Origin: Polaromonas sp.
GTDB lineage: Bacteria; Pseudomonadota; Gammaproteobacteria; Burkholderiales; Burkholderiaceae_C
DNA length: 64,000 nt
Direction of reading: 5' to 3'
Assembly (NCBI GenBank): GCA_030655515.1
Contig: JAURVI010000037.1
Span: 1 to 64,000 of the forward strand
The translations under genes and the position numbers were made by a program. Positions 4,444-63,104 of this stretch are shown in pieces. Positions within the stretch are counted from its first letter, which is position 1; the number at the start of each line of letters is the position of its first letter. Below the pieces are notes generated by a model that was given only the letters and a program-made list of their open reading frames with translations, had not been told where the DNA came from and searched no databases.

Positions 4444-4531
4444 GTTCACTGCCGCATAGGCAGCTCAGAAATATTCCATGTAGCATGGCCTGGCTTGAAT
4501 CGAGTTCACTGCCGCACAGACTATCCCCAAA
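4444..4531 (+). CRISPR. Decayed type I-F CRISPR: repeat, spacer, partial repeat
   Basis: Positions 4444-4471 hold a 28-base unit that starts GTTCACTGCCGCATAGGCAG and ends CTCAGAAA. It matches the type I-F (Cas6f/Csy4) repeat, including the CTGCCGCATAGGCAG stem. A 32-base spacer (4472-4503) follows, then a second unit at 4504 that keeps the first 16 bases (GTTCACTGCCGCACAG) and then diverges, as terminal repeats do. The 28 + 32 = 60-base period is exactly that of I-F arrays. No cas genes lie in the window, so this is a relic or an orphan mini-array. The unit abuts the IS66 fragment without a gap. Confidence 0.72.
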
Positions 4532-8104: not shown

Positions 8105-8482
8105 GCGGGAATAATACGCTGTGCTTCTTTGTAAAAATGAGAACGCGCCGGTATCGCAGTTGGTGGTTCGGGCCCGGCGATCTGGGCTAGGGACAATACT
8201 GTTCGCTTAACCGTTCGGGCTGAGCTTGTCGAAGCCTGTTTGCACTGTGACGACCCTTCGACAGGCTCAGGGCGAACGGGGTTGTAGCGCTTAAATGAAC
8301 AGCATTGGGGCCAGGGAGTGGCAAGCTGCGGCGTAGAGTTGCCCGATGTGCGCTTTGACCGTTTCCCCCGGGGTCATGTTCTAATGGTTTGCCATGAAAA
8401 CCCCGCCTCATCCCGTTTGGCGCCTTCCTTCCTCGGCGGTGGCCCGGTCCGTGCCGCCGGCCTGCGCCAAAGGACGGGCGGC
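8105..8482. other. Intergenic region holding one 114-bp element
   Basis: The 378 bases between ampG and the Hpt gene. They contain the first 114-bp miniature element with its 10-bp flanks (8184-8317). The remaining 165 bases before the Hpt start include a 30-codon frame (8394-8486) that overlaps the Hpt start in an ATGA arrangement. It might be a leader, but I see no support beyond position. Confidence 0.5.
8194..8307 (+). mobile_element. 114-bp palindromic miniature element, copy 1
   Basis: Starts CAATACTGTTCGCTTAA and ends TTAAATGAACAGCATTG, which are imperfect inverted repeats of each other. Inside is a long hairpin whose arms contain GTTCGGGCTGAGCTTGTCGA and its near complement. It is flanked by GGGCTAGGGA (8184-8193) and GGGCCAGGGA (8308-8317), a 10-bp target duplication with one mismatch. 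It has the same length and order as the copies at 43838, 44762 and 62807. It encodes nothing, so it would need a transposase from elsewhere. Confidence 0.8.
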
Positions 8483-42855: not shown

Positions 42856-42870
42856 TCCGCACCCCCATCT

Positions 42871-43036
42871 CTAGTGCAGTGTTGCACGCTATCTGGAACA
42901 TAAAAACGCGTCTTTTGCGCCATGGCGGCGTTGCAAATCCGCGCGATACCTGCGGGTATCGCTGTGGTTTGCGCCTTGCCCCGACCCAAAATCCATCGTT
43001 TTTATTTGTTCCATCAAGCGTGCAACACTGCACCAG
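42871..43036. repeat. CTAG-bounded inverted-repeat element E2 (166 bp)
   Basis: Arms 42871-42890 (CTAGTGCAGTGTTGCACGCT) and 43017-43036 are reverse complements with one mismatch; weaker pairing runs to about 40 bases inward. The interior has CGCGTCTTTTGCGCCAT and CAAAATCCATC, as in E1 (8821-8987), although the arms are unrelated to those of E1. The element sits between the mlaD stop and the coding part of the lipoprotein gene and displaces that gene's 5' end. Confidence 0.7.
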
Positions 43037-43715
43037 TGCAGCGGCTGCCCGCGCTCGTTCCATAAGGGCAGGGAGCCGTTTTTATTTTTATCTGGTGTGC
43101 GCGACCGCACTGCTGCTCGGGGCCTGTTCCGCGCTGCCGGACAAGCCGCTGCGCGCCGCCCTGTACGACTTTGGCCCCGGCCCCTCGGGCACGCAGTCCG
43201 CGCCGCGGCAGTCCGCATTGCCGCCGCTGGCGCTGGCCGACATTTCAACCCCCGGCGGCGTGCTGGACAACCAGGCGGTGCTGTACCGGCTGGCCTACGC
43301 CAATGCGCAGCAGTTGCGGCCATATTCGCAGGCGCGCTGGAGCATGCCGCCGGCGCAACTGGTGCGCCAGCGGCTGCGCGAGACGCTCAGTGTCAACCGT
43401 GCCGTGCTCAATGCCGGCGAAGGCCCGGCCTTGAACCGCGGCGCCAACCAGGGCGTCTTGCCGCGGGTGCTGCAACTGGAGCTGGAGGAGTTCAGCCACC
43501 TGTTCGAGTCGCCCGACGGCAGTGTCGGCCTGATCCGGCTGCGCGCCACCCTGGTGGCGCCCACGCCCAGCGGCGAAAAACTGCTGGCCCAGCGCAACAT
43601 CACGGTGCAACGCCCGGCCCCCAGCGCCGATGCCGCCGGCGGGGTGCGTGCGCTGACCGCGGCGACCGACGCCGCGATTGAAGAAATTGCCTTATGGCTG
43701 CAGCAAGTTCCTTAA
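43020..43715 (+). CDS. ABC-transport auxiliary lipoprotein (PqiC-like)
   Basis: A probable outer-membrane lipoprotein completing the MCE system. The lipobox LLLGAC follows a short hydrophobic run (FYFYLVCATALLLGAC). The mature part (about 195 residues) has the ABC_trans_aux pattern (LYDFGPGPSG...VLYRLAYANAQQLRPYSQARW). An open frame continues back to ATG 42852, but that stretch is element E2. GTG 43020, at the element's edge, is the nearest plausible start and lacks a ribosome site. The native start was probably lost or moved by the insertion. Confidence 0.75.
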   Translation: MQHCTSAAAARARSIRAGSRFYFYLVCATALLLGACSALPDKPLRAALYDFGPGPSGTQSAPRQSALPPLALADISTPGGVLDNQAVLYRLAYANAQQLRPYSQARWSMPPAQLVRQRLRETLSVNRAVLNAGEGPALNRGANQGVLPRVLQLELEEFSHLFESPDGSVGLIRLRATLVAPTPSGEKLLAQRNITVQRPAPSADAAGGVRALTAATDAAIEEIALWLQQVP

Positions 43716-43837
43716 GGGATGACCCGCACGATGGCGGTGCAGCAGCGTTACGAAGCCAATACCCGGCGGGCCATCGATGCCGGCGTGTTCGGTGCGCCCG
43801 GTTATGTGATCGCCGGCGAAATTTTCTGGGCCAGTGC

Positions 43838-43951
43838 CAATGCTGTTCATTGAAGCGCCTCAACCCCGTTCGCCCTGAGCCTGTCGAAGGGTCGTCACAG
43901 TGCAAACAGGCTTCGACAAGCTCAGCCCGAACGGTTAAGCGAACAGTATTG
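43838..43951 (-). mobile_element. 114-bp palindromic miniature element, copy 2
   Basis: Inverted relative to copies 1 and 3. It starts CAATGCTGTTCATTGAAGCG and ends GAACAGTATTG on the plus strand. It is flanked by GGGCCAGTGC (43828-43837) and GGGCTAGTGC (43952-43961), a 10-bp duplication with one transition at its centre. The right flank belongs to the hairpin E3, so this copy jumped into E3, which had itself entered the isomerase gene. Confidence 0.8.
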
Positions 43952-43954
43952 GGG

Positions 43955-43993
43955 CTAGTGCAGTGTTGCATGCTGGATGGAACACTGCATCAG
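43955..43993. repeat. Short inverted-repeat element E3 (39 bp)
   Basis: CTAGTGCAGTGTTGCATGCT, then GGATGG, then AACACTGCATCAG. The ends pair, and the first 30 bases match the arm of E2, so it looks like an E2-type element that lost its interior. It interrupts the isomerase remnant and has been hit by the 114-bp element. Confidence 0.6.
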
Positions 43994-44065: not shown

Positions 44066-44758
44066 ATGGGTAAATTCATCGACCTCACATCGGCAGACGG
44101 TTTTGTGTTTCCGGCCTACGTGGCCGAGCCGGCCGGCAAAGCCAAGGCGGCCGTGGTCGTGCTGCAGGAGATCTTCGGCGTCAACTCGCACATTCGCTCG
44201 GTCGCCGACGGCTACGCGGCGGCCGGTTACCTGGCGGTGGCGCCGTCCACCTTCCACCGCATCCAGCCCGGCGTTGACCTGGGTTACACAGAGGCCGACG
44301 TGAACGCCGGTTTCGGTCTGAAGACGGCCGTCGAGGCGCTGCCGCCGCCGGGCATTCTGCAGGATATTCAGACCGCAATCAAGCATGCCGCGCAAAGCAC
44401 CGGTGGCGGCAAGGTCGGCATCGTCGGTTATTGCTGGGGCGGCTTGCTGACCTGGCGTGCCGCTTGCCTCCTGTCCGACCTGGCGGCAGCCGTCCCGTAT
44501 TACGGCGGCGGCATGACGACAGGCGAGGAGCCAAAGCGCAAGCCGGCCTGTCCGGTGATGGCGCACTTCGGCGACCAGGACCACTGGATTGCGCTGGACA
44601 CGGTGGAGGCCTTCAAGAAAGCGCAGCCCGGCGTGCAGGTGCATGTCTATGAAGCCGACCACGGCTTCAACTGCGATCGGCGCGGCGCCTACAACGAGGC
44701 GGCGGCCATGCTGGCCAAAGAGCGCACACTGGCGTTTTTTGCCAAACACCTCGGCTAA
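44066..44758 (+). CDS. Dienelactone hydrolase family protein
   Basis: Alpha/beta hydrolase of 230 residues. The nucleophile cysteine lies in VGIVGYCWGGLL, the catalytic aspartate near FGDQDHWI and the histidine in YEADHGFNCD, giving the Cys-Asp-His triad of dienelactone hydrolases. The typical substrate is a lactone from chloro- or hydroxymuconate breakdown, but many homologues have other esters as substrate and no catechol genes are near. AAGGAGA is the ribosome site. The gene lies between two 114-bp elements in opposite orientation (43838 and 44762). Confidence 0.9.
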   Translation: MGKFIDLTSADGFVFPAYVAEPAGKAKAAVVVLQEIFGVNSHIRSVADGYAAAGYLAVAPSTFHRIQPGVDLGYTEADVNAGFGLKTAVEALPPPGILQDIQTAIKHAAQSTGGGKVGIVGYCWGGLLTWRAACLLSDLAAAVPYYGGGMTTGEEPKRKPACPVMAHFGDQDHWIALDTVEAFKKAQPGVQVHVYEADHGFNCDRRGAYNEAAAMLAKERTLAFFAKHLG

Positions 44759-44761
44759 GCC

Positions 44762-44875
44762 CAATACTGTTCGCTTAACCGTTCGGGCTGAGCTTGTCGA
44801 AGCCTGTTTGCACTGTGACGACCCTTCGACAGGCTCAGGGCGAACGGGGTTGTAGCGCTTAAATGAACAGCATTG
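44762..44875 (+). mobile_element. 114-bp palindromic miniature element, copy 3
   Basis: The cleanest copy. It is flanked by a perfect 10-bp direct duplication CGGCTAAGCC (44752-44761 and 44876-44885), the first of which includes the dienelactone hydrolase stop codon. Ends CAATACTGTTCGCTTAA and TTAAATGAACAGCATTG are inverted repeats with few mismatches. It sits three bases after the stop, where it could also act as a transcript-ending hairpin. Confidence 0.85.
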
Positions 44876-45080
44876 CGGCTAAGCCATGTTCGTCGTTCTG
44901 GGGTACAAGCGTTTTCAGTCTGCACCCAGGCCGCTGACTGCACCGGCCCGGCGGTGCAGCGCGTTGGTGATCCAGTGCTGGGGGAATAAGTCTTGCGTCA
45001 TGACGTACGTGTGAAGAGTTGGCCGGAGGCACAGTTATCCTGGTGCCAGACCGTGATAAGTCGATCTCTGTCGGTTGCGC

Positions 45081-46247
45081 TCAAATTTCATGAGAGGTCA
45101 AAAAAATCTGTGCCCGTCGATCCGTTGGACGGCGCCCTGTGTTGATGAAATCGGTAAGCGACTGCGTCACCGCATCCACATCAAACCCCAGCGTTCGCAG
45201 GCTGGCTGGAATATTGCTGCTGCGCACCACGGACCGGGCGTAACCCTCGATGAAGGTCTGTTCGATGACGTGCATGCTCCCCAGCTCATAGAACGCTGCC
45301 ATGCCCCGGATATAGTCACTCTTGTTGACATCAGAAAATGAAAACGGCAAAAGGCCATGGACAAGCAGGGGCGCGTTGGCGGCCAGGCGTGAGGTGCGCT
45401 TGTTCCCGTTGGCAAAGGCCTGCAGATAGGGAATGCGCGTCAAGAGGTACAGCGCGGCATTGATGGCGGGCAGCGTGTTTGCCGTCGCGATGACTTTGTC
45501 AAGTGCCTTGGCGATGTAGCCGGTGCCGGGCCGAAACGGTGGGATATAGGCCGAAGCACCCAGACTCACGTCTTCAAACTCCCTGGGCTTGCCTCGTTGG
45601 TGCGCGGGCAAAAAGTGATCCGAGTCGGCGACTTCAGCCAGGTTGTGATCGTCCGTCAGCAGGGCATGCATCGCGCATACATTCTCAACCGTGAGCGCCC
45701 GGTTCGCCCACAGGTATTCAGCCGCCCTTTTGTGGTTGAGCACCAGAACGGCGTCGGCGGTCGGTTTGTCCTTGTTGCGTTGCCCGTAGCCGATCAGGGC
45801 TTCGGTGTCCAGGGCGGAATAGGTGCCTCCTTCAAGAACTGAAGACCCCCACGACAGATCAATCAAAAAGATCGCCAGAAAGCGTCGGTCCATGGGGTTG
45901 GCTATGGCCTGGATTTGCGTGCAGCGAAGGGCTCTTTCAGGATCGATGTTGGGAAGCGTCTCAAGCAGTGCTTCGTTGAAAGGAGCGGCTGGCCGCTGCT
46001 GCCAGGGGATGCTGAAATAGGCGTCTATATCGGCCCGGGTGAACGGTGAGGTGCAGACGTACCGCGTTGTGCGTCCGGCGCCTGCCGTCTTGATGGTGCC
46101 GTTGCCGACCAGCGCAGCCAGTCGCCTGTTCAGCGTCGAACGGCTGAGCTTCGGGAAAAATTTTTCAAGATTTTGTGGGGTGATCCCCGCCGGCCCGGCT
46201 GCGCCAATCTGGGCAAGAACTTCTGAAGGGTCGACGGTCGGAGGCAT
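45081..46247 (-). CDS. Fic-family protein with altered active-site motif
   Basis: A 388-residue protein. An N-terminal winged helix (about 8-65) is followed by a Fic_N-like region and the Fic core. The auto-inhibitory motif S-x-x-x-E-G is seen at residues 135-140 (SSVLEGG). The Fic active loop normally reads HPFx[D/E]GN[G/K]R; here residues 276-284 read QAFANGNKR, so the catalytic histidine is glutamine. The change is found in a sub-family and may mean lost or altered AMP-transfer. The 150 bases upstream are AT-rich, suggesting acquisition. It stands alone, with no antitoxin gene seen. Confidence 0.82.
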   Translation of the reverse strand: MPPTVDPSEVLAQIGAAGPAGITPQNLEKFFPKLSRSTLNRRLAALVGNGTIKTAGAGRTTRYVCTSPFTRADIDAYFSIPWQQRPAAPFNEALLETLPNIDPERALRCTQIQAIANPMDRRFLAIFLIDLSWGSSVLEGGTYSALDTEALIGYGQRNKDKPTADAVLVLNHKRAAEYLWANRALTVENVCAMHALLTDDHNLAEVADSDHFLPAHQRGKPREFEDVSLGASAYIPPFRPGTGYIAKALDKVIATANTLPAINAALYLLTRIPYLQAFANGNKRTSRLAANAPLLVHGLLPFSFSDVNKSDYIRGMAAFYELGSMHVIEQTFIEGYARSVVRSSNIPASLRTLGFDVDAVTQSLTDFINTGRRPTDRRAQIFLTSHEI

Positions 46248-62796: not shown

Positions 62797-62806
62797 TGGC
62801 TAAAAC

Positions 62807-62920
62807 CAATGCTGTTCATTGAAGCGCTACAACCCCGTTCGCCCTGAGCCTGTCGAAGGGTCGTCACAGTGCAAACAGGCTTCGACAAGCTCAGCCCGAA
62901 CGGTTAAGCGAACAGTATTG
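62807..62920 (-). mobile_element. 114-bp palindromic miniature element, copy 4
   Basis: Inverted orientation like copy 2 and starting CAATGCTGTTCATTGAAGCG. The flanks TGGCTAAAAC (62797-62806 and 62921-62930) are a perfect 10-bp direct duplication. It lies in the decayed patch between aspS and nudB. Confidence 0.85.
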
Positions 62921-62957
62921 TGGCTAAAACGGTCAATTAGCAAAATCGGAGTGGTTC

Positions 62958-63104
62958 ATGCAAGTTACTGCCACGGAAGCCAAAAACCGTTTCGGCTACA
63001 TCTGCGCTCAGGCTTGGCGCAGTTTGATGTCTATGCCAATACGCAGCCGGCTTCGCGCCAGCGAGGTCAGCGCTGCCCTGGATGCGGTCATCAGTGGCTT
63101 CTGA
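62958..63104 (+). pseudogene. Phd/YefM-type antitoxin fragment
   Basis: A 48-codon frame whose first 15 residues, MQVTATEAKNRFGYI, match the N terminus of type II Phd/YefM antitoxins. The remainder (CAQAWRSLMSMPIRSRLRAS and EVSAALDAVISGF) does not keep the family pattern, so a frameshift or deletion is likely. No toxin gene follows; nudB begins inside its end. It is a relic of a toxin-antitoxin module. Confidence 0.5.

What the first reader, a model, noticed from the sequence alone, without database searches (positions are those of the whole stretch)
44752..44885. A 114-bp palindromic miniature transposon family with 10-bp target duplications
Four copies (8194-8307, 43838-43951, 44762-44875, 62807-62920) are each exactly 114 bp, with CAATRCTGTTC inverted ends and a hairpin interior. 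Every copy is flanked by a 10-bp direct repeat (two perfect, two with one mismatch). The core hairpin (GTTCGCCCTGAGCCTGTCGA type) resembles a palindrome scattered in many genomes and usually treated as an inert repeat. The target duplications show that here it moves as a unit. No transposase is in the window.
Basis: partly seen in the sequence, partly recalled or inferred. Interest (0 to 1): 0.8.

Follow-up and report, generated by a model that had tools for sequence, protein, structure and literature searches.

The report
Mini-transposon carrying a widespread hairpin repeat
A 114-base piece of DNA with no genes of its own has been copied to about 30 places in this bacterium, most likely by borrowed transposition machinery of a known type (IS4), and it carries inside it a hairpin repeat that is also scattered, on its own, through other bacterial genomes.

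Summary
The window's four copies are exactly 114 bp with 10-bp direct repeats. The draft genome (probably Polaromonas) holds 31 full copies; 28 of 31 have a 10-bp duplication at 9/10 or better, against 3 of 930 mismatched flank pairings, and 26 of 31 centre on YTAR. By its ends and duplication length it is a MITE of the IS4 family, IS4 subgroup. Intact 1.45-1.57-kb IS4 elements with CAATACTGTTC at both ends and 10-bp duplications exist in other genera of the family (7 of 30 loci examined). No such transposase was found in this incomplete genome. Elsewhere it stands alone without adjacent duplications (20 of 20 loci), as a REPIN-like pair of units with co-varying stems. A second MITE family in this genome (119 bp, 4-bp duplications) carries the same kind of core, and four hybrids join one end of each family, one with a perfect 10-bp duplication. 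In relatives the same ends carry other interiors. Ordinary in kind, unusual in its modular build.

The parts
44762..44875 (+). MITE copy, 114 bp, identical to the 8194 copy; target duplication CGGCTAAGCC at 44752-44761 and 44876-44885
   Evidence: the duplication holds the stop codon of the dienelactone hydrolase gene 44066-44758
43838..43951 (-). MITE copy, 114 bp; duplication GGGCCAGTGC (43828-43837) / GGGCTAGTGC (43952-43961), 9/10
   Evidence: interrupts the 3' end of a gene that is uninterrupted in the 9 of 9 relatives printed
8194..8307 (+). MITE copy, 114 bp; duplication GGGCTAGGGA (8184-8193) / GGGCCAGGGA (8308-8317), 9/10
62807..62920 (-). MITE copy, 114 bp; duplication TGGCTAAAAC (62797-62806) / (62921-62930), 10/10
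   Evidence: lies between the aspS-like gene (ends 62558) and the NUDIX gene (starts 63082); 0 of 21 relatives with both neighbours aligned carry these ends or core there
44762..44778 (+). Left end CAATACTGTTCGCTTAA of the 44762 copy
   Evidence: sequence; compared with IS4-subgroup ends
44779..44847 (+). Cargo core CCGTTCG...CGAACGG: two inverted hairpin units (GTTCG starts at 44781 on +, 44845 on -) with a spacer
   Evidence: sequence; unit positions
44848..44875 (-). Right end region; the outermost 11 bases read CAATGCTGTTC on the - strand
   Evidence: sequence

Best explanation
The 114-bp element is a non-autonomous MITE of the IS4 family, IS4 subgroup, with ends like those of ISBvi1-like elements. 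Inferred mechanism: a DDE transposase of that subgroup, supplied in trans by an element lost from or not assembled in this genome, binds the CAATRCTGTTC ends, moves the unit and joins it across a 10-bp staggered cut preferring a YTAR centre, which leaves the 10-bp duplications. The interior is cargo: a REPIN-like pair of inverted hairpin units, carried here both by this MITE and by a second MITE family. Because both families share the core and favour YTAR, recombination in the core is the likeliest source of hybrids with one end of each. Shown: copies, ends, duplications, absence at orthologous places in other species, intact IS elements with the same ends, shared core, hybrids. Inferred: the trans-acting transposase, its chemistry, and recombination as the source of the hybrids.
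For: 31 copies, 28 with a duplication of 9/10 or better, YTAR at positions 4-7 in 26 of 31. Ends fit the published IS4-subgroup signature -AATR--------WTW with 10-13-bp repeats (PMC2266710): fully for the left end and the ATTTAA form of the right end, one base off for its ATTGAA form. Of 30 PF13006 loci examined, 7 hold a complete element with CAATACTGTTC at both ends and a 10-bp duplication; the 10 complete elements found all carry Y-2-R-3-E-6-K. Two Cupriavidus elements, one annotated ISBvi1-like, have duplications CGGCTAGACA and ACTTTAAGCC, both YTAR-centred. The same ends bound other interiors in relatives. Core in two families and in hybrids.
Against: No PF13006 gene in this genome, and none complete in the genus: 2 of 87 genomes match, with fragments or pieces at contig ends. 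Sequence shared with the IS elements is limited to the ends. The three 1.56-kb IS elements, whose ends are closest to the MITE's left end, have no YTAR centre. The Cupriavidus right end begins AAATACTG, not CAATACTG. Three of four hybrids lack a 10-bp duplication.
Confidence: 0.8

Rival explanations
1. The moving unit is the hairpin core itself, a REPIN spread by a Y1 (RAYT-type) transposase; the CAAT ends are incidental.
For: The core is a REPIN-like inverted pair with co-varying stems, is frequent without the ends, and 13 of 13 core-rich genomes searched have a PF01797 Y1 transposase.
Against: The duplications abut the CAAT ends, not the core; elements with the same ends and 10-bp duplications but other interiors exist; 0 of 18 Y1 loci has a core unit within the stretch held, about 1.5 kb each side. 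Core-free genomes were not searched for Y1, so 13 of 13 has no control.
Confidence: 0.05
2. The copies were moved by some other transposase, for example the IS701-family gene on contig C34 or an unrelated family with a 10-bp stagger.
For: The IS701 gene is the only PF01609 transposase in the assembled genome.
Against: IS701 gives 4-bp duplications (PMC2266710 Table 1) and that copy's outer sequence (TCTTACTGTGTCACAA) is unlike CAATRCTGTTC. IS elements with the MITE's own ends and duplication length are IS4-type.
Confidence: 0.07
3. The hybrids come from transposition or replication errors, or from draft assembly, rather than from recombination between cores.
For: Draft of 52 contigs with near-identical repeats; several second-family copies lie at contig ends. 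L034, L037 and L038 have no 10-bp duplication.
Against: L033 joins one end of each family and has an exact 10-bp duplication, and L036 (core inverted) and L035 (77 bp) also have exact duplications, which a chance misjoin would not give. L037's flanks fit a second-family insertion into a first-family duplication followed by core-core deletion (inference).
Confidence: 0.25

Closest known systems
IS4 family, IS4 subgroup (E. coli IS4; ISBvi1-like elements of Cupriavidus)
   Same: Terminal sequence class (-AATR--------WTW), 10-bp duplications, and for the ISBvi1-like elements the CAATACTGTTC end and a YTAR-centred target
   Different: No transposase, 114 bp instead of about 1.45 kb; interior unrelated to the IS beyond the ends
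REPINs / REP doublets (PMC3116915: abstract and passages seen; PMC3733652: passages seen)
   Same: The core: inverted pair of short hairpin units with a spacer and compensatory stem changes
   Different: Outer bases CCGTTCG, not the GTAG or CGTC tags; no unit beside a Y1 transposase in 18 of 18 loci; here it rides inside MITEs with DDE-type ends
MITEs reported from Polaromonas sp. JS666 (cited for that genus in the review PMC10969869, passages seen; the paper itself is not held)
   Same: Same genus; a genome that I recall as JS666 by its contig lengths (G064) has elements with these ends and other interiors
   Different: Unknown: the original description could not be read

Membership tests
MITE of the IS4 family, IS4 subgroup | Ends -AATR--------WTW (PMC2266710 Table 1) | tested here: met
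   CAATACTGTTCGCTTAA and CAATGCTGTTCATTTAA fit; the CAATGCTGTTCATTGAA form misses one of the WTW bases
MITE of the IS4 family, IS4 subgroup | 10-13-bp target duplication | tested here: met
   10 bp at 9/10 or better in 28 of 31 copies
MITE of the IS4 family, IS4 subgroup | Short, without a transposase, sharing ends with an intact IS of the family | tested here: met
   Intact IS4-type elements with CAATACTGTTC ends in other genera; none found complete in this genome or genus
MITE of the IS4 family, IS4 subgroup | Moved in trans by that transposase | not testable with these tools
   needs a transposition assay
REPIN (core only) | Inverted doublet of hairpin units with compensatory changes | tested here: met
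   31 distinct units: 86.5% of cells paired against 68.0 in shuffles, covariation score 0.486 against 0.185 (0 of 500 shuffles); the count of pairs changed on both sides (3) is not unusual, 136 of 500
REPIN (core only) | GTAG (or CGTC) tag at one end of the unit | tested here: not met
   20 of 20 stand-alone cores are bounded by CCGTTCG...CGAACGG; tags from PMC3733652 passages
REPIN (core only) | Units beside a RAYT gene | tested here: not met
   0 of 18 PF01797 loci from 13 genomes
Second family as an IS5-type MITE | 4-bp YTAR duplication outside GG...CC ends (IS5 assignment recalled) | tested here: inconclusive
   Exact 4-bp duplication in 8 of 13 complete copies; 3 of 13 right ends lack the CC; no IS with these ends was found in the loci held

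The most novel reading that the evidence does not exclude
A free-standing, REPIN-like hairpin repeat found in 53 of 141 genera sampled in one bacterial family acts as an exchangeable core for MITEs: two MITE families with different transposase ends in one genome carry it, each is copied by its own transposase, and the core is the hub at which new end combinations arise, including a hybrid that itself gave a 10-bp duplication. This would be a route by which an apparently inert palindrome changes its way of spreading and by which new MITE families are born.
Probability: 0.4. Interest if true: 0.62.

Novelty: new variant of a known kind. Interest (0 to 1): 0.47.

Why it matters
MITEs are usually seen as worn-down copies of one IS. 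Here ends and interior have separate histories, so a widespread hairpin repeat of unknown origin can be seen riding two different transposition systems in one genome. That gives a concrete, testable case for how MITE families form and how palindromic repeats spread.

Tried and rejected
Stop-codon targeting. The YTAR target overlaps TAA/TAG, and the 44762 copy sits in its neighbour's stop codon. But 14 of 31 sites have a frame of at least 100 codons ending in the duplication against 38.6% of 44 control YTAR sites in the window (at 150 codons: 11 of 31 against 22.7%); too small a difference, and the copy test allowed TGA while the control did not. Dropped.

Autonomous element in the genus. The end pattern in 87 genomes led to short elements wherever I found a partner end; 30 PF01609 loci of 16 relatives, out of a capped listing, showed no matching pair; the lone end at C27:8748 was looked at only in a short stretch and not pursued. 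In the window, Rfam reported no family at the MITE copies. The phage collection gave no match; 18 plasmid records matched, none over 80% of the query.

Literature. Strings of the core: none or only chance matches by their titles (listing). MITE with Polaromonas, IS4-family MITEs, modular MITEs, IS4 subgroups, ISBvi1 and REP/RAYT: I saw the listings, and in them no title or abstract start describing this element; most papers were not opened. Opened: PMC2266710 (passages and one section), PMC10969869, PMC3733652, PMC3116915 (passages).

Rows dropped before counts. The 31 copies leave out six variant copies (L033-L038) and three lone cores (L039-L041). The 30 elements are those I picked from 40 fetched loci as having two recognisable ends; some with weak ends (such as L110, L121, L132) were picked because of their duplication. 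20 of these 30 have 8/10 or better, 10 of 30 do not (counted). The aspS-NUDIX comparison counts 21 of 28 loci. The 20 stand-alone cores were chosen by me from the capped list as inverted pairs.

Full report
Observation. The four copies are as described: 114 bp, CAATRCTGTTC inverted ends, 10-bp direct repeats, two perfect and two with one mismatch. The genome in which the window lies is a draft of 52 contigs, 2.65 Mb, about 85% complete, and holds many more. I fetched them with flanks. Of 31 copies with both ends and both flanks, 21 have an exact 10-bp duplication, 7 one mismatch, 1 three mismatches and 2 six mismatches. Flanks from different copies reach 9/10 in 3 of 930 pairings and 10/10 in none. 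YTAR stands at positions 4-7 of at least one flank copy in 26 of 31. The repeat is copy-specific, as a target duplication must be.

Organism. The nine best relatives of the neighbouring dienelactone hydrolase in named genomes are all titled Polaromonas (74-85% identity), so the window is probably from a Polaromonas metagenome-assembled genome. Handle G064 has contigs of 5,200,264 and 338,007 bases, which I recall as Polaromonas sp. JS666.

Absence in relatives. After the hydrolase gene (44762 copy), 15 of 15 relatives printed, of 80 loci returned, have no element in the 110 bases shown. At 43838 the interrupted gene is continuous in the 9 of 9 relatives printed; next to this copy the window also has another short repeat, so the site is not clean. 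Between aspS and the NUDIX gene (62807 copy), 21 of 28 loci had both neighbours aligned; 0 of 21 hold these ends or core, with gaps of 58-228 bases against 554 in the window, which has other extra DNA there too. These are other species: single-copy flanks are seen, strain-level empty sites are not. The 8194 copy was not compared.

What moves it. The ends recalled E. coli IS4, whose ends I then read as TAATGCCGATCAGTTAAG and TAATGCCAGTCAGTTAAG. PF13006, the IS4 N-terminal domain, matches 28 of 399 genomes of the family. Of 30 loci examined, 7 hold a complete 1.45-1.57-kb element with CAATACTGTTC at both ends and a 10-bp duplication; an eighth starts CAATACTCCTAG. The scan demanded an exact flanking repeat of 10-13 bases and two ends alike in at least 11 of 20 bases, so those are by construction; the letters of the ends were not demanded. 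The 10 complete elements found all carry Y-2-R-3-E-6-K, and the transposase of L184 scores 270 bits for the NCBIfam IS4 model (cut-off 115). A 77.8%-identical transposase in Cupriavidus sp. USMAA2-4 is annotated ISBvi1-like; its 1,455-bp element and that of C. metallidurans CH34 start CAATACTGTTCAGATA at the left end and AAATACTGTTCAGATA at the right, with duplications CGGCTAGACA and ACTTTAAGCC. YTAR is central in 4 of the 7 elements and in both Cupriavidus ones, but not in the three 1.56-kb ones. The subgroup's published features are ends -AATR--------WTW and 10-13-bp repeats (PMC2266710, passages and section 6). The mobiliser itself was not found in this genome, nor complete in the genus.

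The interior is cargo. In the genus, 36 of 87 genomes match the 17-base end with at most one mismatch; the reversed control pattern has 7 hits in all. I picked 30 elements from 40 fetched loci: they are 92-219 bp, 20 of 30 have duplications of 8/10 or better, and interiors differ. The script flagged the same hairpin in 14 of 30; by eye 8 of 30 have another palindrome (GGATCCATGGAT type) and two more a decayed hairpin. Conversely, 55 of 150 genomes of the family hold the hairpin unit, up to 167 times in one; the reversed control pattern has 12 hits. In 20 of 20 stand-alone pairs from 8 other-genus genomes the core ends at CCGTTCG...CGAACGG; 5 of 20 have some exact repeat of 7 or more bases within 60 bases, none abutting the core on both sides. 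The unit is GTTC-GNNNT-GAGCYTGTCGA-ANNNY and its stem co-varies over 31 distinct sequences: 86.5% of cells paired against 68.0 in shuffles, covariation score 0.486 against 0.185 +/- 0.029, 0 of 500 shuffles as high; the number of pairs changed on both sides (3) is not unusual, 136 of 500. The collecting pattern fixed the loop and the first stem base only. Related sequences can exceed such shuffles without structure, so this is support, not proof. The build resembles REPINs, but 0 of 18 Y1-transposase loci in 13 core-rich genomes has a unit in the stretch held. What spreads the stand-alone core is unknown.

A second MITE family and hybrids. The same genome has a second repeat with the same kind of core: 119 bp, ends GGCAATGCTGAATAAGTC and GGCTACGCTGAATAAGTC, exact 4-bp duplications in 8 of 13 complete copies. 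Of 122 units in the genome, 61 lie in 31 first-family copies, 10 in six variants, 32 in 18 second-family loci and 6 in three lone cores; 13 were not placed. Four variants join one end of each family across the core: L033 (105 bp, exact 10-bp duplication CAGTTAACCC), and L034, L037 and L038 (2/10 each, no 10-bp duplication). L036 has the core inverted and L035 is a 77-bp internal deletion; both have exact duplications. L037 can be read as a second-family insertion into the CTAA of a first-family duplication followed by deletion between cores; that is inference.

Verdict. It fits the IS4 subgroup by the features that sequence can test. The less ordinary part is modular: separate histories of ends and core, one core in two MITE families, and end-swapping hybrids. 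The listings of my literature searches show no description of it, but most listed papers were not opened and the Polaromonas JS666 paper, cited by a review for MITEs in that genus (PMC10969869, passages), is not held, so priority is open.

Noticed in passing
window 4444-4531: Two CRISPR-type repeats (GTTCACTGCCGCAYAG...) 60 bases apart; the first reaches Rfam CRISPR-DR4, the second is decayed. Looks like a remnant array; cas genes were not looked for.
   Followed up: partly
window 42859-43048: Another inverted repeat, arms of 48 bases 77% complementary and 94 bases apart, ending GTGCAGTGTTGCA; a shorter sequence of the same type adjoins the 43838 MITE at 43958-43993 and the flank of copy L012. 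Possibly a further small mobile palindrome.
   Followed up: partly
L107 3751-4017 and L117 518-838: Two elements in tandem sharing three copies of one 10-bp target (GGGTTAGAGT, GGTCAGGTCT): one element seems to have inserted into the duplication of another.
   Followed up: no
L068 59-1468 (contig C34): IS701-family transposase gene, 469 aa; second-family MITE copies L069 and L075 are followed by the same outer sequence (CTTACTGTGTCACAA), so they lie beside an IS701 end.
   Followed up: partly
window 62921-63081: Right of the 62807 copy a short frame begins MQVTATEAKNRFG, which looks like the start of a Phd/YefM-type antitoxin (by eye; no family search run).
   Followed up: no
window 45081-46247: Fic/DOC-domain protein (PF02661) facing the 44762 MITE copy.
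   Followed up: no
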